A stretch of 19,587 nt of DNA from Clostridia bacterium (GTDB lineage Bacteria > Bacillota_A > Clostridia > Christensenellales > Aristaeellaceae), in the NCBI GenBank assembly GCA_017509065.1, contig JAFWQM010000150.1, positions 1 to 19,587 of the forward strand, in the 5' to 3' direction. This document shows positions 3,922 through 19,587 of the stretch, piece by piece. Position 1 is the first letter of the stretch. Each line of letters starts with the position of its first letter. Below the pieces are notes generated by a model. It worked only from the letters and a program-made list of their open reading frames with translations. It ran no database searches and was not told the origin of the DNA. Position numbers and translations under genes: made by a program.

Positions 3922-3959
3922 CCCCCACAGCGTCCCTAAAAGCGCTGTGGGGGACTTTT
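3922..3959 (+). terminator. Strong intercistronic hairpin / terminator
   Basis: A perfect 11-bp GC-rich stem (CCCCCACAGCG 3922-3932, CGCTGTGGGGG 3943-3953) with a 10-nt loop, followed by ACTTTTC. The T-tract is short, so termination may be partial. Only 38 nt separate it from the next start codon and no promoter is visible there. Confidence 0.7.
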
Positions 3960-3997
3960 CGCTTCATCGAAATCTTTTCCCTTGGAGGACAGCGACC

Positions 3998-5467
3998 ATG
4001 CGCCCGGAACACAAAAGCCTTTCCGTCCTGCTGCGCGAATATGCGGCGTCAGAGCCCAATCGGCGGCTGCTGGGGTCTGAAAACCGGTGGTACACGGCCG
4101 GGGAAATGCAGGCCCATGCCGCCGCTGCGGCGTGCTGGCTGAGGACGCAGGGGATCAGGCCGGGCGATTTTGTGGCCCTTTCAGCGAGGCGCAGCGCTTC
4201 CACCGCGGTTTGCCTGTTTGGCCTGCGGCTGCTGGACTGCGCAGCCGTGCTGACAGACCCCCACGCAACCCCCGAAGCGTTCCTGGCAGAGTGCGCCGCG
4301 GCCCTCCCTGCCGCCGCTGTGCTGGAACCCGGGGCGGATGGCCGCGTGACCCTCCGCAGGCAGGGTGAGGCCATCGCCTTCGATCCGTTTTCCCTGCCCG
4401 CTGCTGACGCCGCGCTGCCGGAAGCGCCTTCCGATCAGGCGGGATATGTGATTTTCACCTCGGGCTCCACCGGGCAAAGGAAAGCAGTGCTGCTCAGCGA
4501 CGATCAATTTTACAATAACCTGCTGGATTCCCAGCCCTTGGGCAAGTATCGGGGGGATGACATCGCTCTGGGCATCCTCCCCCTGGAGCATGTGTTCGGC
4601 CTGGTGCTGCTGTTCGGCGCGGCAGCGCTCCGATACGCGCTGTTTTTCCCCGGGAAAACCGATCCCGATTCGCTGGTGAACGCCATCGAAACGCAGGGGA
4701 TCACGCGGATGAACGGGGTGCCCAGCCAGTATATCGCCCTGGCGGAAGCGAAAGGGGAGAAGCCGCTGCCCACCTTGTCCGCCGGGTTCATCGGGGGCAG
4801 CCCCCTTGCCCCGGACACGTTCATCCATCTGGAAAAAAGGCTGGGTATGAAGCTGATCCCCGTGTACGGCATGAGCGAATGCGTCGGCATCAGCTGCGCC
4901 TACTGGGAGGATTCCGTGGAGGTGCGCGCTCAGACCGTGGGCCGGTTTTACAGCATGAATCGCGGCGTGATCCTGCGCGAGGACGGCAGTGCAGCGCAGA
5001 CGGGGCAAATCGGCGAAATCTGCGTGGACGGCCCCTCCCGCATGCTGGGCTATTACGGCGCGACCGAAGCGCGGGAACGCTTTTTCAGAACCGGCGATCT
5101 GGGGTATTTGGATCAGGATGGGCGGCTGCATCTGACAGGGCGCAGGAAAGAAATCATCATCCGCAACGGGAAGAATTTGTCTCCCGCCCGCATCGAACAG
5201 GCGCTGCTGCGTTTGCCCCAGGTAAAGGCTGCCGCCGTGGTGGGCCTGCCCGATGAAAAGGCCGGGGAGGTGCCCGGGGCCGTGGCGGTGTGCGAAGGGG
5301 CCGAAACGGAAGACGATTTATTGCAGGCCCTGGCCCCGCTTCTGCCCAAGAACGAGCGGCCCGCGGCTTTGCGCGTCGTGAAAGAAATCCCCCTGCTGCC
5401 CACCGGCAAACCGGATAAAATGCGAATTCGGAAGGAGCTGCTGCAATGGCTGAATCGGTCATCCTGA
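3998..5467 (+). CDS. AMP-forming acyl/aminoacyl ligase (DltA-like)
   Basis: A 489-aa adenylate-forming enzyme of the ANL superfamily, near the usual DltA length of about 500 aa. Visible core motifs are FTSGSTGQRK (153-162, ATP loop), VYGMSE (289-294), RTGDLGYLD (adenylate ribose binding), GRRKEIIIRNGKNLSP (hinge region) and the C-terminal PTGKPDK with catalytic K471. All key residues are present, so it should be active. It would activate a carboxylate as acyl-AMP; the substrate is unknown. The start at 3998 is set by TTGGAGGA about 8 nt upstream; upstream in-frame codons read through the terminator hairpin. It is the first gene of a cassette with a small membrane protein, an MBOAT acyltransferase and an SGNH protein, the context of D-alanylation or O-acylation of surface polymers. 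No DltC-type carrier gene is adjacent. It overlaps the next gene by 22 nt. Confidence 0.85.
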   Translation: MRPEHKSLSVLLREYAASEPNRRLLGSENRWYTAGEMQAHAAAAACWLRTQGIRPGDFVALSARRSASTAVCLFGLRLLDCAAVLTDPHATPEAFLAECAAALPAAAVLEPGADGRVTLRRQGEAIAFDPFSLPAADAALPEAPSDQAGYVIFTSGSTGQRKAVLLSDDQFYNNLLDSQPLGKYRGDDIALGILPLEHVFGLVLLFGAAALRYALFFPGKTDPDSLVNAIETQGITRMNGVPSQYIALAEAKGEKPLPTLSAGFIGGSPLAPDTFIHLEKRLGMKLIPVYGMSECVGISCAYWEDSVEVRAQTVGRFYSMNRGVILREDGSAAQTGQIGEICVDGPSRMLGYYGATEARERFFRTGDLGYLDQDGRLHLTGRRKEIIIRNGKNLSPARIEQALLRLPQVKAAAVVGLPDEKAGEVPGAVAVCEGAETEDDLLQALAPLLPKNERPAALRVVKEIPLLPTGKPDKMRIRKELLQWLNRSS

Positions 5468-5679
5468 CGCTGCCCATCGTCCTTGCGGGCTATGGGCTGG
5501 CGCTGCTGCTGCTCCTTACGGATTTCATCCGGAAGCCCGCCGGGGGCGCGCTGCGCTTTGCGTCGGCGTTTCTGGCGGTGGGGGCCACGGCCTGGGGCCT
5601 GCTTATGGGCGTATCCCTTTCGGAAGCCGCCCTGGCGCTGACCGTGTTTCTGCTATTGAATATGGGGGTGAGGAAGTGA
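5446..5679 (+). CDS. Small membrane protein between ligase and MBOAT
   Basis: A 77-aa, strongly hydrophobic protein with two or three membrane helices (about 4-26, 35-55 and 58-74). The ATG lies inside the end of the ligase gene and has GAAGGAG 8-14 nt upstream; the stop overlaps the GTG of the MBOAT gene. It occupies the place where a carrier protein might be expected, but it has no phosphopantetheine DSL-type motif and is clearly membrane-embedded. It may be analogous to DltX, the short DltB-associated membrane protein of Gram-positive dlt operons, but I see no sequence evidence for homology. Confidence 0.7.
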   Translation: MAESVILTLPIVLAGYGLALLLLLTDFIRKPAGGALRFASAFLAVGATAWGLLMGVSLSEAALALTVFLLLNMGVRK

Positions 5680-7139
5680 ATTTTAATTCCCTGGCCTTTC
5701 TCATCTTCCTCCCCATTGCGGTGGGCTTTCACTGGCTGCTGCCCCATCGGGCGCGGAAATACTGGCTGCTGGCGGCTTCCTGGTTCTTTTATATGTACTG
5801 GAACCCGCTGTTCATTTTCCTACTGCTGTTTTCCACGGCGGTGGATTACTTCTGCGGCCGGGGCATGGCGCACTGGCGGGAGCAAAAAAGGATCAAACGG
5901 CTGCTGCTTTCCGTTAGCATGGTGATGAACCTGGGGCTGCTTTTTTTCTTCAAATACTGGGATTTTTTCGGCGGCATCATGAACGGCGTGTGGGCGGCCC
6001 TGGGCCTTTCCTTCCGCACGCCGGAGCTGAACCTGATCCTGCCGGTAGGCATCTCCTTTTACACCTTCCAGACCATGAGCTACACCATCGACGTGTACCG
6101 GGGGAAATTTGAGGCGGAAAAGGATTTCGTCACCTTCGCGCTCTATGTTTCCTTCTTTCCCCAGCTGGTGGCCGGGCCCATCGAAGCCCCGGGCAATCTG
6201 CTGCCCCAGCTGAAAAAAGAGCGTCGGTTCCAGCGCGAGGACGTGTCCGCCGGGCTGCGGCTTTTGCTGTGCGGTTTTTTCCGAAAGTGCGCGGTGGCGG
6301 ACCTTTGCGGCGTGTATGTGAACCGGGTATTTGCCCAGGCGGAGCAAGCGTCCTCCTTCGCCATCTTTTTGGCGGGCGCGCTGTTCTGCTTCCAAATGTA
6401 CTGCGATTTCGCGGGATATTCCGAGATCGCCGCCGGGTCGGCAAGGCTCATGGGCATAAGGCTCATGAAAAACTTCGATCAGCCCTACCTGTCCCAGAGC
6501 TACGGGGAATTCTTCCGCCGTTGGCATATCAGCCTGAACCGCTGGTTCACCAGCTATGTGTACATTCCCCTGGGGGGCTCCCGGCGCGGGACCGCCCGCA
6601 GGATGGCAAACACCCTGATCGTATTCGCGCTGTGCGGATTATGGCATGGGGCCCGGTGGAACTATGTGCTCTGGGGCCTGTACGCGGCGCTTTGGGTTTG
6701 CGTGGAGGGCCTGCTGGAACAGCCCACGGGAAGGCTTGCGGAAAAGTGGAGGCTGCCATTGTCCGCCCCCTGGTTCGTTTGGCTTCGGCGGGGGATCATG
6801 TTTCTGATTTTCGTGCCCGCCGGGCTGATTTTCCGCGCCTCCTCTCTGGAGCAAGTGGGCGTTGTTTTTCATCGGCTGCTTAACGCCCCCGGCAGCGCTG
6901 CCGCCGCCCTGCAGAGCATGGACCTGACCGGCCTAAACGCCCTTCGTTTGATTCTGACGCTGCTGGCCATGGCGCGGCTGAGGCCCTGGGGCGAAGCCGA
7001 TCTGCCCGGTGCGAAAACCGGCCGGGACAGCGCCCGGAAAATGGTCAGCGCCGTGTATTTTCTGCTCATCATCGCCTGCGCCTGGCTGGCCCTGCTGGCT
7101 ACCCAGGACGCGGCGGAGTTTGCTTATTTCCAATTTTGA
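5676..7139 (+). CDS. MBOAT-family membrane O-acyltransferase (DltB/AlgI-like)
   Basis: A 487-aa polytopic protein of the membrane-bound O-acyltransferase family. Diagnostic stretches are FFRRWHISLNRW (conserved H284), YIPLGGSRRG, and CGLWHGARWNYVLWG with the invariant catalytic H324. Also typical are the early YWLLAASWFFYMYWNP segment and LPVGISFYTFQTMSYTIDVYRG. MBOAT proteins of this type carry acyl groups through the membrane to an extracellular acceptor. Translation starts at a GTG that overlaps the preceding stop by 4 nt (GTGA), so it is coupled. Length and motifs are complete. The acyl donor is probably supplied by the ligase at 3998; the acceptor polymer is unknown. Confidence 0.92.
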   Translation: MNFNSLAFLIFLPIAVGFHWLLPHRARKYWLLAASWFFYMYWNPLFIFLLLFSTAVDYFCGRGMAHWREQKRIKRLLLSVSMVMNLGLLFFFKYWDFFGGIMNGVWAALGLSFRTPELNLILPVGISFYTFQTMSYTIDVYRGKFEAEKDFVTFALYVSFFPQLVAGPIEAPGNLLPQLKKERRFQREDVSAGLRLLLCGFFRKCAVADLCGVYVNRVFAQAEQASSFAIFLAGALFCFQMYCDFAGYSEIAAGSARLMGIRLMKNFDQPYLSQSYGEFFRRWHISLNRWFTSYVYIPLGGSRRGTARRMANTLIVFALCGLWHGARWNYVLWGLYAALWVCVEGLLEQPTGRLAEKWRLPLSAPWFVWLRRGIMFLIFVPAGLIFRASSLEQVGVVFHRLLNAPGSAAAALQSMDLTGLNALRLILTLLAMARLRPWGEADLPGAKTGRDSARKMVSAVYFLLIIACAWLALLATQDAAEFAYFQF

Positions 7140-7148
7140 GGAAGCTCC

Positions 7149-8606
7149 ATGAAAAAGAAAACCGTAAGGATCGTATGCGCGCTGCTGCTTGCGGCGCTCA
7201 TCCCCCTCAGCCTGATCACAGCCGACCTGCTGCTTCCGGATTATTACAGCGAAAGCTACTATGCGGCGCTTTCGTCCATGGTGCGCAGGCTGGACAGCGC
7301 CCCGGGAAACAGGCTGATCGTGCTGGGAAACAGCGACGTGGCCTTCGGGCTGGACGGGGCGCTGCTGGAAGAGATGCTGGCTGAAAAAGGGCTGTCCTAT
7401 ACCGTTTGCCCCTTTGGGCTCTATGGGGCGGTGGGCATGTCCGCCATGCTGTCCCTGTCCCAAGGCGCGCTGAAAAAGGGCGATGTTGTGGTGCTCGTCT
7501 GCGAGCCGGTGTCGGACGCGCTGTCCGCTTACTTTGGCGCAAGCGCTTTTTGGAAATGCGCCGAAAGCAGCCGCTGGCTCCTTCCCCGGGTGGGGGAGCA
7601 GCAACGATCGGCCCTCTGGGGCAATTATCTTTCTTATCTTCAGGAGAAAATGGCGATCGCATCCAGCGGGGAGGCCCCAAGGCCCTCGGGCGTTTATGCC
7701 AAAGCGGCTTTTGACGGGCGGTGCGATTTAACATATCCACGGCCCGGGAACGTGCTGCCCCTGGGCTACGATACGTCTTCTCCCGTTGATTTGCGGGAAG
7801 CGCGGGTATCGGCGGACTTTGCCGCCCAGATCAAAGCCTACTGTGAAGAAGCAAAAAAAGCCGGCGCGAAAGTGTGCGTCAGCTTCAGCCCGGTCAACGC
7901 TTTGGCGGTCCTGGACTCTTCCCCCGAAGCGGTAAAAGCATTTTTCGACGAGATCAACCGGGCGTTTCCCTGCCCCGTCATCAGCGACCCCAACCGCTAT
8001 ATCCTGGACAGCGGATGGTTTTACGATACCAATTTTCATTTGAACACAGCCGGAGCCCGGCTGCGCACCTGCCTGCTGGCGGAGGAGCTTTTGCCGTACC
8101 TTGGCTGCTATTCTCCGGTTGCTTATGAACAGCCAGCCATGCCTCCTTCCGCCGCCGCTCTGCCCCAGGAAGGAGAGGACGACGGCAGCTTCCTTTTTGC
8201 CGCAACGCCGGACGGAAGGGGATGGCTGATTTGCGGCGTTTCGGAAGCGGGGCAGAAAAAAGAATCGCTGTCCGTTCCCGCTTTTCACGAGGGCCTGCCT
8301 GTGGCGGGCTTTGCCGACGGCGCGCTGAAGAACGCTGGAAGCATGGCGGAGCTGCGGCTTCCGGCCTCCATCGAGGATCTGCCGGACGGTGTGTTCCGCG
8401 ATTGCGCGTCCCTCAGGCGGGTCGTTTTTTCCCATCGGGAAGCGCCCTGCCGCGTTCATCCGGACACCTTCCAGGGCACGGCGAACCTGCGCGTGTTTGT
8501 GCCCGACACGGATTACGTGCTGTACCGGGACGGCGTGGGCTGCGAAGCGAATCCCTGGGCGGAGCACCTGGACCGGGTCTTCCGCTACTCGCTTCAAGAT
8601 GAATGA
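7149..8606 (+). CDS. Membrane-anchored SGNH acyl-transfer protein with BspA repeats (DltD/AlgJ-like)
   Basis: A 485-aa protein with an N-terminal signal-anchor (about 5-30). The SGNH-type domain follows (about 50-330): block I is IVLGNSDVAFGL with presumed nucleophile S62, and the C-terminal block is FYDTNFHLNTAG with D293 and H297. The last roughly 110 residues (about 375-470) look like BspA-type leucine-rich repeats, for example MAELRLPASIEDLPDGVFRD. It starts 9 nt after the MBOAT stop, with GAGGAAG as ribosome site. DltD and AlgJ/AlgX proteins perform the final extracellular step with MBOAT partners, so this protein probably transfers the acyl group to the surface polymer or removes it. 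The repeats may bind the polymer or the cell wall; this is inferred. Confidence 0.75.
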   Translation: MKKKTVRIVCALLLAALIPLSLITADLLLPDYYSESYYAALSSMVRRLDSAPGNRLIVLGNSDVAFGLDGALLEEMLAEKGLSYTVCPFGLYGAVGMSAMLSLSQGALKKGDVVVLVCEPVSDALSAYFGASAFWKCAESSRWLLPRVGEQQRSALWGNYLSYLQEKMAIASSGEAPRPSGVYAKAAFDGRCDLTYPRPGNVLPLGYDTSSPVDLREARVSADFAAQIKAYCEEAKKAGAKVCVSFSPVNALAVLDSSPEAVKAFFDEINRAFPCPVISDPNRYILDSGWFYDTNFHLNTAGARLRTCLLAEELLPYLGCYSPVAYEQPAMPPSAAALPQEGEDDGSFLFAATPDGRGWLICGVSEAGQKKESLSVPAFHEGLPVAGFADGALKNAGSMAELRLPASIEDLPDGVFRDCASLRRVVFSHREAPCRVHPDTFQGTANLRVFVPDTDYVLYRDGVGCEANPWAEHLDRVFRYSLQDE

Positions 8607-13636: not shown

Positions 13637-13756
13637 CTGTTGCTCTGCCCGCTGCTCCTGGATGCGTTTCTGCTCTTTCAGCACTGAATCAATCTGCGCC
13701 TTGATGCGGAAAAGTTCTCTGGATGCTTCCCGCTGCTGCTTCAATTTTTGATACAT
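13610..13756 (-). CDS. 48-aa coiled-coil small ORF, mobile-element remnant
   Basis: Read on the minus strand, ATG at 13756 to TGA at 13612-13610 gives 48 residues, almost entirely charged and Gln-rich (it contains QQREASRELFRIKAQIDSVL), consistent with one coiled-coil helix. The upstream site (GAAGT) is weak. It begins 13 nt after the stop of another minus-strand fragment, so the two may once have been neighbouring genes of a mobile element. I do not recognise the family, and it could be a remnant. Confidence 0.4.
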   Translation of the reverse strand: MYQKLKQQREASRELFRIKAQIDSVLKEQKRIQEQRAEQQKKDQMNRE

Positions 13757-13769
13757 TCGTTTACTTCAA

Positions 13770-13901
13770 TCATGATTCATTCTGGCCTTTGTACATGAAA
13801 GCGGAAAATTCTACGGCTTCCGTTTTCGTTCCTATTTGTGCCGGTGCCGCACTGGTATGGGGATTATCAGGGAAGAAGTCATCAATACTTTGTAAACAAG
13901 C
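13770..13901 (-). pseudogene. C-terminal fragment of an unrecognised minus-strand gene
   Basis: The minus-strand frame ending at 13770 gives about 42 residues of normal-looking protein composition (for example SIDDFFPDNPHTSAAPAQIG and KTEAVEFSAFMYKGQNES). Further upstream the same frame runs antisense through the traG fragment and looks like shadow sequence. The natural N-terminal part appears lost at the inverted repeat at 13902-13938. The competing plus-strand reading of this stretch resembles nothing. Low confidence. Confidence 0.3.
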
Positions 13902-13938
13902 AGCCGCTGACAAGATCACACCGATCCTGACAGCGGCT
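13902..13938. repeat. Inverted repeat at the junction of two truncated genes
   Basis: AGCCGCTG (13902-13909) is mirrored by CAGCGGCT (13931-13938). A nested GATC-ACACC-GATC can pair inside it. On the plus strand TTTTGC follows. It lies exactly between the minus-strand fragment ending on its left and the TraG-like homology starting at 13939 on its right, so it may be a recombination scar or an old terminator. Confidence 0.4.
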
Positions 13939-14274
13939 TTTGCATATATCCACAGCGAGAAAGATATTTTGAAGCTGGTGAATACCCTGATCCTGAACAC
14001 GAAAGGCGATGGACAGGGCGGCGACCCCTTCTGGACGAAAGCGGAAACCTTGCTGCTGACCTCCCTGGTAGGGTATCTGCATTATCACATGCTGCCCAAG
14101 GAGCAGAATTTCTCCATGCTGCTGGATATGCTGAATCTCATGGATGTGAGAGAGGACGACGAGGATTATAAGAATCCTGTCGATCTGCTGTTTGAGAAGA
14201 TCGAAAAGAAAAATCCCCATGGCTTTGCGGTGCGCCAGTACAAAAAATATAAGTTAAGCGCGGGTGTGACATAA
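13939..14274 (+). pseudogene. Fragment of a TraG/VirD4-type conjugative coupling protein
   Basis: About 111 residues match the middle of type IV coupling proteins of Clostridial conjugative elements: FAYIHSEKDILKLVNTLI, GDPFWTKAETLLLTSLVGYL, then EEQNFSMLLDMLNLMDVRED and HGFAVRQYKKYKLSAG. The intact family is about 600 aa. The Walker A region that should precede this segment and the Walker B and C-terminal part that should follow are absent. The reading frame is open to the left as far as 13723, but residues before FAYIH do not look like the family. The homology stops at SAGVT, where a stop codon follows, 67 nt before the recombinase start. It is a double-truncated remnant. Confidence 0.75.
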
Positions 14275-14314: not shown

Positions 14315-16599
<2,285 letters not shown>

Positions 16600-16761: not shown

Positions 16762-17076
16762 CAAGCATTACCGAAGTTCCATGCTGCTGATTGGAGTCGA
16801 GGGAAGCCGGAGATAGCGGATGCTTTCAGACAGACTTTGCCTCTCCCCGCAGGGGCGGATTCTGGGTTTTACGCAGAACTGCTCACTCATATCGACGTGA
16901 GCAACAATCAAGGCCTGATGCTGCTGGCCGCCATTATGAACGACGTCATCGTGGCGGCCGGGCGGGAGGAGCGGCCAGCCACGCCGTTGGAGACCTTTCC
17001 GGATTGGCTGCGGTATAAACGGACACATGAGATACAAGATGCAAAACCACAGGACATACAGAATCCGGGAATCTGA
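16762..17076 (+). pseudogene. 5'-truncated ORF of unknown family
   Basis: The frame from 16762 to the stop at 17074-17076 gives about 104 residues of ordinary protein composition (for example GKPEIADAFRQTLPLPAGAD, LTHIDVSNNQGLMLLAAIMN and FPDWLRYKRTHEIQD). No ATG or GTG opens the frame; the only candidate is a TTG at 16837 without a ribosome site, which would remove about 25 residues that look equally protein-like. I interpret it as the C-terminal part of a gene broken by the mobile element. Function unknown. Confidence 0.4.
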
Positions 17077-17124: not shown

Positions 17125-19116
17125 TTGGAAAGCAGGCTATTGTCTACGCGGATCTGCCGGGACTATCCGGGCCGTCCGGCCATCGTCGACAACGGCGGCA
17201 GCTGTACCTACGAGGACATGCTTAAGGGCATCCGTGGACTTGAGAAAAGGCTTCGGGAGATGGGCGTTGAAAAGGGCAGCCGGGTAGCGCTGTGGGGCTA
17301 CAACTCCGCCAACTGGCTGATCGCGTTTTTCGCCATCGTCCGGGTGGGCGGCACCGCTGTACTGGTGAATTACAGCATGGGCAGCGCCGACGCTGCCGAA
17401 CTGCTGACGATGACGGAGACGGGCTTCCTGCTGTGTGGTGACAACGGGGAGACAAAGAAGGACCCGGACGCGATGCGCAAGCTGGCATCGCTTTCGGGCA
17501 TCCCGGAGGACCGTTGCCTGGATATCCGTCCCGCCGCGCTGGACCTGGGGTATATGTTCCGTGACGTAGCGGGGGACGATGCGCCCGATACCTCCGACGA
17601 GAACGCCACCGCCTTCATCATATTCACCTCCGGCACCACCTCCCAGCCCAAGGCGGTGCAGATCTCCCAGAAAGCGCTGTCCTTCGACGCGGACGCCTTC
17701 AACGAAAACATCGGCGCATACGCGGGCCGCAGCGTGTGCGTGGCTGTGCCGCTGTTCCACATACTGGGTTTGCTGATGAGTTACGCCTACCTGTGCCGGG
17801 GGGCAACGGTGTGCCTGCCCGACAACTACAAGCCGGAAACGCTGGTTCGGGAGATAGACGCCTACCGCATTTCGGACATGGCGGCAGTGGGCGCAATCTA
17901 CCTGAGCCTGGCCGACGCGGAGGGCTTTGAGAAGAACGTGGTGCCCAACCTGCACCTGTGCATGATCGCGGGGGGCATGTCCACCCCGGTGCAGATGATG
18001 CGGTTGGAACTGCAATACGCCAACGCTACCTTCATCAACATGTACGGCCAGAGCGAGGCCGCGCCACTGACGATGGTGCGCCCCTCCGACATGGTGGAGA
18101 AGCGGGCCCAGACCGTGGGCCAGGCCATCGGGGGCTTGGATATACGCATTTCCGATGGCAAGGGCGGCTTCCTGCCCCAGGGCGAGATCGGCGAAGTGGT
18201 AGCCCGCGGCAACAACCTGATGAACGGTTATGATCGACTGCCGCGGGAAAAACAGCCCATCGATGAAAATGGATGGCTGCATACCGGGGATTTGGGCTAT
18301 TTCGACCCGGAAGGTTTTCTGCATCTGTCAGGGCGCATCAAAGACGTGATCATCCGGGGCGGGGAAAATATTTCTCCCTCAGAGATCGAAGCCGCCCTGA
18401 ACCAGCTGGAAAACGTGCGGGAAGCCAAGGTCATGGGCGCGCCCCATCCCATCTACGGTGAGAGCGTGGAGGCCTGCGTCACCATGACAGATGGTGGCAA
18501 GAGCTTCGATCAGGAGGCGTTGAAGGCCGCGCTGCGGCGGGTGATCGCCCGGTTCAAGGTGCCCTCCCACATCTTCCTGTACGACAGCTTCCCGTTGAAT
18601 GTGAACGGCAAGCTGGACCAGCGCACGCTCCACGCGGACATGCTCACCCGCCTGCGGCGGCTGGCGGTGGACGAGGAGCTGGCGGGCGGCGTGACCGTGT
18701 TCGACGTGGTGGTGCGCAACAGCGACTACGCCATCGTGCCCGTCACCAGCATGGCCAGCGAGCTGGCCCAGGCCGTGGGCTTCAGCCGCCGCCGCTTGAT
18801 GTCCATTCGCCTGGCGGTGGAGGAGATGCTCACCGAGCGCATTACAGACGCCTATTCCGCCGCCGGCGACATCCGTATGCGGATCACGCTGATGCCCGAA
18901 TGGCTGCGCATCTCGTTCAGCGACGACGGCGCGGAGTACTTCATCGACAAGCGCCGGGACACCTCCATGAGCGCGAAGATCATCCTGAAGGCCGTCAGCG
19001 ACTTCCACACCGATTACCCGAATGGCAAGCCCGTCTACTGCATGGACTTCCTGTATGAAAACGAATTCAGCATCCAGGAATTTTTGATGAAGAGCAAGGA
19101 GGAGATCGAAGCATGA
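17125..19116 (+). CDS. Adenylate-forming ligase fused to an RsbW-like GHKL ATPase domain
   Basis: A 663-aa two-part protein. Residues 1-505 are a complete ANL-superfamily ligase: FTSGTTSQPK (167-176), NMYGQSEAAPL, HTGDLGYFDPEGF, GRIKDVIIRGGENISPSEIE and VNGKLDQ with catalytic K496. Residues about 520-650 resemble the anti-sigma-factor type of GHKL/histidine-kinase ATPase. IRLAVEEMLTERITDAY aligns with the N-box helix of RsbW (E567 kept, E571 where Asn is expected), and ISFSDDGAEY (D600-D601-G602) resembles the G1 box. Translation starts at a TTG with AGGAAGG about 10 nt upstream; a TGA at 17116 blocks earlier starts. The next gene, with a condensation-type motif, overlaps by 4 nt (ATGA), so the two products probably work together. 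The acyl or amino acid substrate and the role of the ATPase domain are unknown. Confidence 0.82.
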   Translation: MESRLLSTRICRDYPGRPAIVDNGGSCTYEDMLKGIRGLEKRLREMGVEKGSRVALWGYNSANWLIAFFAIVRVGGTAVLVNYSMGSADAAELLTMTETGFLLCGDNGETKKDPDAMRKLASLSGIPEDRCLDIRPAALDLGYMFRDVAGDDAPDTSDENATAFIIFTSGTTSQPKAVQISQKALSFDADAFNENIGAYAGRSVCVAVPLFHILGLLMSYAYLCRGATVCLPDNYKPETLVREIDAYRISDMAAVGAIYLSLADAEGFEKNVVPNLHLCMIAGGMSTPVQMMRLELQYANATFINMYGQSEAAPLTMVRPSDMVEKRAQTVGQAIGGLDIRISDGKGGFLPQGEIGEVVARGNNLMNGYDRLPREKQPIDENGWLHTGDLGYFDPEGFLHLSGRIKDVIIRGGENISPSEIEAALNQLENVREAKVMGAPHPIYGESVEACVTMTDGGKSFDQEALKAALRRVIARFKVPSHIFLYDSFPLNVNGKLDQRTLHADMLTRLRRLAVDEELAGGVTVFDVVVRNSDYAIVPVTSMASELAQAVGFSRRRLMSIRLAVEEMLTERITDAYSAAGDIRMRITLMPEWLRISFSDDGAEYFIDKRRDTSMSAKIILKAVSDFHTDYPNGKPVYCMDFLYENEFSIQEFLMKSKEEIEA

Positions 19117-19587
19117 GCAACACGCGCCCCAGCTTTGAAAAGAAGGAATTGGCCATTTCCAGCAGCCCCTATATCTATCTGCCGATAGACATTCCCGCCT
19201 ACACCGTGGAGCTCACCCACCGGGACCCCGTCGACGGGACGCTGCTCCAGCGCGCACTGAACCGGACGATCCAGCGCATGCCCTATCTTTCCGATACGCT
19301 TGTCATCGACCACGGCGCCGTGTATTACGCAAACAATCCGCTGCCCATGGAGGCCGCCCATGTGGCGGGCATACGCCACGTCGGGGGCAGCGAGACCAAC
19401 TATCACATGCTGGATCTCACCTATGACGGCAAAGTGACCTGGTTCACCATGTACCACGGCTTCTGCGACGGGCAGGGCATCTACACCTTCCTGGAATCGG
19501 TGCTGTATCACTATTACTGCATGAAGGATGGCGTGGAATACGACCCCAATGGTATCCGCTGCGACAGCACCGAGGCCACGGAGGCCG
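19113..19587 (+). CDS. Condensation/acyltransferase-family protein, partial
   Basis: The first 158 residues of a gene cut by the window end. The motif MYHGFCDGQG places H115 and D119-G120 in the HxxxDG signature of condensation-domain and alcohol acetyltransferase/PapA-type acyltransferases. The preceding segment (LLQRALNRTIQRMPYLSDTL) matches the helix found before that motif in these families. The first His of the classical HH pair is Tyr here. The start overlaps the ligase-GHKL stop by 4 nt with AAGGAGG about 10 nt upstream. It would transfer an activated acyl or aminoacyl group to an amine or alcohol. NRPS condensation domain and stand-alone acyltransferase cannot be told apart from this fragment. 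Confidence 0.72.
   Translation, partial: MSNTRPSFEKKELAISSSPYIYLPIDIPAYTVELTHRDPVDGTLLQRALNRTIQRMPYLSDTLVIDHGAVYYANNPLPMEAAHVAGIRHVGGSETNYHMLDLTYDGKVTWFTMYHGFCDGQGIYTFLESVLYHYYCMKDGVEYDPNGIRCDSTEATEA

What the first reader, a model, noticed from the sequence alone, without database searches (positions are those of the whole stretch)
17125..19587. Adenylating enzyme fused to a GHKL ATPase, coupled to a condensation-type acyltransferase
One polypeptide joins a complete acyl/aminoacyl-adenylating enzyme to an RsbW-like ATPase domain, and the next overlapping gene carries an HxxxDG acyltransferase motif. Ligase plus condensation enzyme is biosynthetic logic; a GHKL anti-sigma-type domain belongs to partner-switching regulation. 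A fused form suggests a product-forming pathway whose enzyme also senses or signals, or an ATPase fold reused for catalysis or binding. I do not know a described system with this architecture.
Basis: partly seen in the sequence, partly recalled or inferred. Interest (0 to 1): 0.8.

Follow-up and report, generated by a model that had tools for sequence, protein, structure and literature searches.

The report
Acyl-activating enzyme with pseudo-kinase docking domain
In gut and rumen bacteria, an enzyme that activates acids for attachment carries a worn-down copy of a signalling-kinase domain and sits next to acyl-transfer enzymes and, in a number of relatives, to parts of a phosphorylation switch, suggesting that a biosynthetic pathway is controlled directly by a switch best known from gene regulation.

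Summary
Window 17125-19116 encodes one 663-aa protein: a complete acyl-CoA-ligase-type enzyme plus a C-terminal GHKL-fold domain. The next gene, overlapping by ATGA and cut by the window end, is a condensation-fold (PapA5-like) acyltransferase with HGFCDG. The fusion is no artefact: 338 protein hits and 55 genome loci, in Bacillota, Actinomycetota and one Spirochaetales bin. But the GHKL domain is degenerate: the N-box Asn is Glu in 163 of 164 sequences, and ATP-lid and glycine box are replaced by a conserved DTSxSA, so kinase activity is unlikely. Predicted neighbours exist in relatives: a 98.6%-identical contig continues acyltransferase, acyltransferase, methyltransferase-STAS, MATE exporter; L027 adds SpoIIE phosphatase, STAS and an intact GHKL kinase in one run. 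STAS and SpoIIE genes lie within 10 kb in 8 and 7 of 27 genomes, five- to six-fold above expectation; 17 of 27 show neither. No listed sigma gene lies there. Best reading: the ligase is the target of a partner-switching circuit, docking a STAS protein through its pseudo-GHKL domain. Docking and product are untested. Partner switching of enzymes is known (HsbA-HsbD, SiaC-SiaD); a GHKL-derived receiver fused to a biosynthetic enzyme looks like a new variant.

The parts
17125..19116 (+). 663-aa fusion: ANL acyl-adenylating enzyme + degenerate GHKL domain (TTG start; ATG at this place in L008)
17155..18231 (+). AMP-binding domain (residues 11-369); TSGTT 168-172, YGQSE 307-311, TGD 387-389
18382..18612 (+). 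AMP-binding_C domain (420-496) ending with the catalytic-type Lys496 (NGK), 164 of 164 conserved
18691..19053 (+). GHKL/RsbW-like fold, residues 523-643
18820..18855 (+). degenerate N box EEMLTERITDAY (566-577): Asn replaced by Glu571 in 163 of 164
18922..18930 (+). retained G1-box DxG (D600, G602), 164 of 164
18958..18975 (+). DTSMSA (612-617) in place of the lid and GGLG box; S614 and A617 in 164 of 164
19113..19587 (+). condensation-fold (PapA5-like) acyltransferase, cut by the window end (158 codons); full-length relative L060:237-1538
19455..19472 (+). HGFCDG active-site motif (HxxxDG) of the acyltransferase

Best explanation
The protein is an acyl-CoA-ligase-type enzyme that feeds activated acyl groups to the condensation-fold acyltransferases encoded right behind it. 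Its C-terminal domain is a pseudo-GHKL: a former RsbW/SpoIIAB-type kinase domain that lost the ATP-binding motifs and now serves as receiver of a partner-switching circuit. A separate intact GHKL kinase phosphorylates, and a SpoIIE-type phosphatase dephosphorylates, a STAS protein (stand-alone, or fused to a methyltransferase or an APH-type kinase); the unphosphorylated STAS domain docks on the pseudo-GHKL and switches or recruits the ligase. Shown: fusion, motif loss and its fixation, intact ligase motifs, acyltransferase fold and adjacency, enrichment of STAS and SpoIIE genes nearby. Inferred: docking, direction of control, acyl-CoA as product, final product.
For: Motif state in 164 sequences (116 of the 120 listed proteins, those of at least 600 aa, plus 48 rows from the window and loci): N-box Asn->Glu 163, S614 and A617 164, ligase Lys496, Glu311, Asp389 164; the 15 canonical kinases that I aligned all keep N and GG.G. 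STAS within 10 kb of the fusion in 8 of 27 genomes (expected 1.28, P 2e-5), SpoIIE in 7 of 27 (expected 1.30, P 2e-4). Among the 55 fusion loci, methyltransferase-STAS proteins lie in 8 and small STAS proteins in 6 (union 13 of 55), SpoIIE-cluster proteins in 8 of 55, four of these eight tested with Pfam. L027 holds fusion, 2 acyltransferases, SpoIIE, MATE, HAD, FGGY kinase, intact GHKL, STAS in one run; L051 fusion, GHKL, STAS, SpoIIE. An acyltransferase-cluster gene starts within 400 b downstream in 39 of 55 loci; 3 loci end too early, 13 lack it there. The methyltransferase domain occurs in 14 of 27 fusion genomes (11 with 200 bits or more; two of these supplied rows of the profile) against 4 of 398 phylum-sample genomes, all 4 under 140 bits.
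Against: No interaction was tested. In 17 of 27 genomes neither STAS nor SpoIIE was listed within 10 kb (lists cut, many contigs short). 13 of 27 genomes gave no methyltransferase match at all, so that protein cannot be the general partner. HATPase_c_2 gave no match in G408, and in G410 only the fusion itself and two long frames that may be sensor kinases, so an intact RsbW-type kinase is not shown in every carrier. Pocket positions are nearly invariant, more than simple docking needs, so the pocket may hold a ligand. STAS/SpoIIE counts include ordinary modules such as spoIIA-type operons (G402, G405, G411, G422). The genomes are related, so counts are not independent; habitat and lineage may confound the phylum comparison.
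Confidence: 0.45

Rival explanations
1. The degenerate GHKL pocket binds a small ligand (a nucleotide or pathway metabolite) and regulates the ligase allosterically; STAS proteins are only neighbours.
For: Near-total invariance of pocket-side residues: R572, D600, G602, K609, S614, A617 in 164 of 164, E567 and E571 in 163, with DxG retained. In 17 of 27 genomes no STAS or SpoIIE was listed within 10 kb.
Against: STAS and SpoIIE genes cluster with the fusion above chance; glycine box and lid are gone, so ordinary ATP binding is unlikely.
Confidence: 0.2
2. Docking scaffold rather than switch: STAS tags on the methyltransferase and the APH-type kinase and the pseudo-GHKL tag on the ligase hold a multi-enzyme assembly together, as docking domains do in assembly lines.
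For: Two enzyme kinds with STAS tags near the fusion; in L060, 98.6% identical to the window's last 710 bases, a methyltransferase-STAS follows the two acyltransferases.
Against: The STAS tags mostly keep a Ser-containing S[SA]xGLR-type phospho-site stretch, which a pure tag would not need; the L006 copy lacks it; stand-alone STAS proteins occur as well; 13 of 27 genomes gave no methyltransferase match.
Confidence: 0.15
3. The fused domain is an active kinase of an unusual kind that phosphorylates STAS partners, coupling acyl supply to signalling.
For: GHKL homology and retained N-box Glu567 and DxG; G408 carries the fusion, STAS and SpoIIE but gave no HATPase_c_2 match.
Against: Asn to Glu in 163 of 164; lid and glycine box lost in all 14 rows of A1; HATPase_c_2 matches other than the fusion occur in 26 of 27 genomes, though some lie in long frames that may be sensor kinases.
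Confidence: 0.07
4. Structural relic: the domain only stabilises or dimerises the ligase.
For: The fusion is the only arrangement I recognised in the 120 listed long proteins. A search for short proteins with the domain gave 54 hits, 5 of them on contigs over 10 kb, which I did not check; so stand-alone copies are neither shown nor excluded.
Against: Fixation of pocket-side residues and neighbour enrichment.
Confidence: 0.13

Closest known systems
RsbW / SpoIIAB anti-sigma kinases (GHKL, HATPase_c_2)
   Same: Fold and sequence homology of the C-terminal domain
   Different: Fused to an enzyme; N-box Asn and glycine box lost; no listed sigma match nearby
Partner switching of enzymes: HsbA-HsbD, BgrV-BgrR and SiaC-SiaD diguanylate cyclases (PMC8457831; abstract, outline and passages seen)
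   Same: A STAS or STAS-like protein, gated by phosphorylation, controls an enzyme instead of a sigma factor
   Different: There the enzyme is a diguanylate cyclase, and in SiaD the binding site is a stalk; here the enzyme is an acyl-activating ligase carrying a degenerate GHKL domain
Acyl-CoA ligases (oxalate-CoA ligase 5ie0, feruloyl-CoA synthetase 8wev, PRK06187 long-chain type)
   Same: Complete ANL core and motifs
   Different: Extra GHKL domain; below the cut-off of all 25 NCBIfam models shown; substrate unknown
FadD-PapA5 pairing of mycobacterial lipid assembly (pairing recalled; PapA5 1q9j is the top structure hit)
   Same: AMP-forming ligase plus condensation-fold acyltransferase
   Different: About 14% identity; no PKS or carrier protein recognised among the scanned neighbours
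STAS fused to glycosyltransferase, all4160 of Anabaena (PMC8256260, passages seen)
   Same: STAS domain on an enzyme
   Different: Here methyltransferase and APH-type kinase carry STAS, and the ligase carries the GHKL side

Membership tests
ANL acyl-CoA ligase | AMP-binding and AMP-binding_C domains over cut-off | tested here: met
   221.4 and 51.3 bits against 29.9 and 24.5
ANL acyl-CoA ligase | P-loop, YGxxE, TGD and catalytic Lys (roles recalled) | tested here: met
   T168, G170-T172, E311, D389, R404, K496 in 164 of 164; S169 in 162
ANL acyl-CoA ligase | CoA as acceptor | not testable with these tools
   needs assay; nearest solved relatives are CoA ligases and amide-bond synthetases
RsbW/SpoIIAB GHKL kinase | GHKL fold | tested here: met
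   HATPase_c_2 itself 25.3 bits, under its 27.4 cut-off
RsbW/SpoIIAB GHKL kinase | N-box Asn (Mg site; function recalled) | tested here: not met
   Glu in 163 of 164, Lys in 1; Asn in 15 of 15 canonical kinases aligned
RsbW/SpoIIAB GHKL kinase | ATP lid and glycine box | tested here: not met
   replaced by DTSxSA or near variants
RsbW/SpoIIAB GHKL kinase | linked sigma factor | tested here: inconclusive
   none of the listed Sigma70_r2 matches lies within 10 kb of the fusion in 27 genomes; list cut
Condensation/PapA-type acyltransferase | HxxxDG | tested here: met
   window copy has HGFCDG; H115, D119, G120 in 19 of 19 picked rows; a few cluster members lack it
Condensation/PapA-type acyltransferase | two-lobe CoA-dependent acyltransferase fold | tested here: met
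   model pLDDT 91.4; PapA5 E 5.7e-15; no Pfam family over cut-off
Partner-switching system | STAS protein and SpoIIE phosphatase in the genome | tested here: met
   27 of 27 genomes each
Partner-switching system | separate intact GHKL kinase in the genome | tested here: inconclusive
   HATPase_c_2 matches in 26 of 27 genomes, none in G408; some are the fusion itself or lie in long frames
Partner-switching system | STAS protein binds the target | not testable with these tools
   needs binding assay

The most novel reading that the evidence does not exclude
Bacteria have turned the GHKL-STAS pair from a gene-regulation switch into a phosphorylation-gated docking code for enzymes: the ligase bears a pseudo-GHKL socket, tailoring enzymes (methyltransferase, APH-type kinase) bear STAS plugs, and a SpoIIE phosphatase with an intact GHKL kinase decides which enzymes assemble and hence what product is made and exported.
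Probability: 0.18. Interest if true: 0.85.

Novelty: new variant of a known kind. Interest (0 to 1): 0.6.

Why it matters
If right, it gives a directly testable case in which partner switching acts on a biosynthetic enzyme through a domain derived from the switch's own kinase, with STAS domains also built into neighbouring enzymes. It could explain part of the STAS/SpoIIE/GHKL genes without an adjacent sigma gene in these gut and rumen anaerobes, and points to an unidentified acylated product.

Tried and rejected
Assembly error or isolated case: rejected (338 protein hits; 55 of the 57 loci fetched). NRPS-like system with carrier protein: none seen in the protein or in the neighbours scanned with Pfam, a part of all neighbours. 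Defence system: no PADLOC match for 4 proteins. Stand-alone copies of the degenerate domain: the search with the domain alone could only return proteins of roughly 80-250 aa; 54 hits, 5 on contigs over 10 kb, not checked one by one, so the question stays open. Phylum-wide survey: 0 of 398 genomes carry the fusion at E<=1e-6 (the same profile found it in 27 of 27 genomes known to hold it); 3 of 247 genomes of the order of G415, all three already known positives. So the fusion is rare and these samples could not give a background by family. PDB structure lists for the whole model were filled by the ligase part and say nothing about the GHKL part. Recent transfer between phyla: not supported; Bacillota and Actinomycetota rows each need one change on the tree, the Bacillota branch with weak support. 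Literature: nine searches listed no paper that by title or start of abstract describes this fusion; only open-licence PMC papers are held.

Full report
What is there. ORF 17125-19116 encodes 663 aa, and ORF 19113-19587 starts within its last codons (ATGA) and runs off the window. Pfam gives AMP-binding (2.2e-65), AMP-binding_C (2.4e-13) and HATPase_c_2 (1.7e-5, slightly under cut-off).

The fusion is real and widespread, though rare. A search with the C-terminal stretch gave 338 proteins; the 120 listed are mostly of about 660 aa and all carry the ligase domain. 57 genome loci were fetched, of which 55 hold whole or partial copies; L061 matches only the ligase at 25% and L062 only 35 residues. 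28 of these loci, lying in 27 genomes, were searched again and all 27 genomes gave the domain, 24 of them once. The full-length rows run from 97% to 43% identity, over Bacillota, Actinomycetota and one bin labelled Spirochaetales; on a 48-row tree the Bacillota rows (weak support) and the Actinomycetota rows each need one change. In a sample of 398 genomes of the nearest phylum none had it, and in 247 genomes of the order of G415 only three already known ones.

The ligase part. Nearest solved relatives are oxalate-, feruloyl- and fatty-acyl-CoA ligases and, by Foldseek, amide-bond synthetases and malonyl-CoA ligase as well. NCBIfam's best model is a long-chain fatty-acid-CoA ligase subfamily, below its cut-off. 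Catalytic-type motif residues are fixed: T168, G170-T172, E311, D389, R404, K496 in 164 of 164 sequences.

The GHKL part. The predicted order of strands and helices at 523-643 is that of RsbW/SpoIIAB (the comparison of the order is my own, and confidence is low, 57-69, around the N box and the lid). Foldseek lists a phage HK/HSP90-like ATPase (E 9.5e-5; range not shown), the profile finds B. subtilis RsbW (E 2.2e-5), and profile-profile comparison with 15 intact GHKL kinases, taken from L027, L051 and the stretches, gives E 4.3e-9. But the N-box Asn, present in 15 of 15 of those kinases, is Glu in 163 of 164 fusion sequences; the lid and GGxG stretch is replaced by DTSxSA, with S614 and A617 in 164, T613 and S616 in 162; DxG of the first glycine box stays. 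The reading as a pseudo-kinase whose altered pocket is under strong selection is inference from this.

The acyltransferase. 19 rows, picked for diversity, align with invariant H, D and G of HxxxDG; in the whole cluster a few members, such as L055 12328-13548, lack the full motif. The model of the full-length relative L060:237-1535 (pLDDT 91.4) matches PapA5 (E 5.7e-15), TRI101 and NRPS condensation domains, although no Pfam family reaches its cut-off. A gene of this cluster starts within 400 b behind the fusion in 39 of 55 loci; three loci end too early; of the other 13, L031 has one upstream and L056 one 557 b downstream. Several loci carry two or more copies, L055 six.

What lies to the right of the window. 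Contig L060 is 98.6% identical to the window's last 710 bases and continues with acyltransferase, a second acyltransferase, a 421-aa methyltransferase-like protein with a C-terminal STAS domain, and a MATE exporter (MATE by clustering with the Pfam-tested L027 protein). The STAS part matches STAS at 2e-11; the methyltransferase part is weak: LCM 0.0012 and TIGR00027 5.6e-6, both under cut-off. A search with this second fusion gave 1,536 hits, the 120 listed being 70-99% identical.

Partner-switching genes. L051: fusion, intact GHKL, STAS, HAMP-SpoIIE. L027: fusion, two acyltransferases, SpoIIE (by clustering), MATE, HAD, FGGY kinase, GHKL, STAS. L032: fusion, two acyltransferases, SpoIIE, STAS. 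L055/L056: STAS-APH or STAS, membrane acyltransferase, fusion, STAS, many acyltransferases, STAS-APH; further along SpoIIE and GHKL, 16-25 kb from the fusion. Stretches L074 and L080 hold the same SpoIIE-STAS-GHKL-MATE set without the fusion. In 27 genomes, STAS lies within 10 kb of the fusion in 8 (expected 1.28, P 2e-5) and SpoIIE in 7 (expected 1.30, P 2e-4); either in 10, neither in 17. The positions come; the lists are cut, so counts are lower bounds; the genomes are related, so the P values are rough. The methyltransferase domain occurs in 14 of 27 fusion genomes (11 with at least 200 bits; G403 and G415 supplied rows of the profile) and in 4 of 398 genomes of the phylum sample, all under 140 bits; the two sets differ in habitat and lineage. 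HATPase_c_2 matches were found in 26 of 27 genomes, none in G408, and some are the fusion itself or lie in long frames. None of the listed sigma-factor matches lies within 10 kb of the fusion, whereas spoIIA-type STAS-GHKL-sigma runs do appear elsewhere in G402, G405, G411 and G422, which shows that the method sees them.

How it most likely works. The ligase activates an acid; acyltransferases move it to an unknown acceptor; MATE may export the product. The pseudo-GHKL domain is proposed as the receiver for a STAS protein whose phosphorylation is set by an intact GHKL kinase and SpoIIE. Precedents for enzyme targets are HsbA-HsbD, BgrV-BgrR and SiaC-SiaD (PMC8457831: abstract, outline and passages seen). 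Every binding step is inference.

Limits. Only single-chain models could be made; the product is unknown; the near-invariant pocket leaves a ligand-sensing role open; 17 of 27 genomes show no listed STAS or SpoIIE within 10 kb.

Noticed in passing
window 3947-8606: A second AMP-binding enzyme (506 aa), a 77-aa ORF without a Pfam hit, an MBOAT protein and a 485-aa protein in a row: looks like a surface-acylation operon of dlt/alg type (label recalled).
   Followed up: partly
window 14342-16599: Serine recombinase with DUF4368 and TnpV protein upstream of the fusion gene, with a weak T4SS coupling-protein match below cut-off at 13723-14274: mobile DNA borders the locus; a gene of the same cluster as TnpV lies behind the acyltransferases in L058.
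   Followed up: no
window 16837-17076; L006 2015-2440; L007 147-392: Short ORF conserved upstream of the fusion in the window and its two closest loci; no Pfam match for the window and L007 copies.
   Followed up: partly
L006 near 8139 against L060 4047-4089: The methyltransferase-STAS gene of L006 lacks about 42 bases that in L060 encode the STAS phospho-site stretch; in-frame, may be real or an assembly fault.
   Followed up: no
L055 7581-8756, 20009-21295; L056 20440-21678; L081 2182-3363: STAS domain fused to an APH-type kinase near or in partner-switching loci (Pfam for L055 7581 and L056; the others by sequence similarity).
   Followed up: partly
L074, L080, L027: Recurrent block SpoIIE, STAS, GHKL, MATE, in L074 and L027 with HAD and FGGY kinase, without a sigma gene recognised by eye: a partner-switching module that may have no sigma target.
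   Followed up: partly
L034 3520-4530, L035 3716-4831, L051 2657-3904, L055 8814-9935, L056 8850-9956, L067 4638-5789: Membrane acyltransferase (Acyl_transf_3/HGSNAT type; L034 and L056 by clustering only, L034 without Pfam hit) directly before the fusion in several deep-branching members, and between STAS and SpoIIE in L067.
   Followed up: partly
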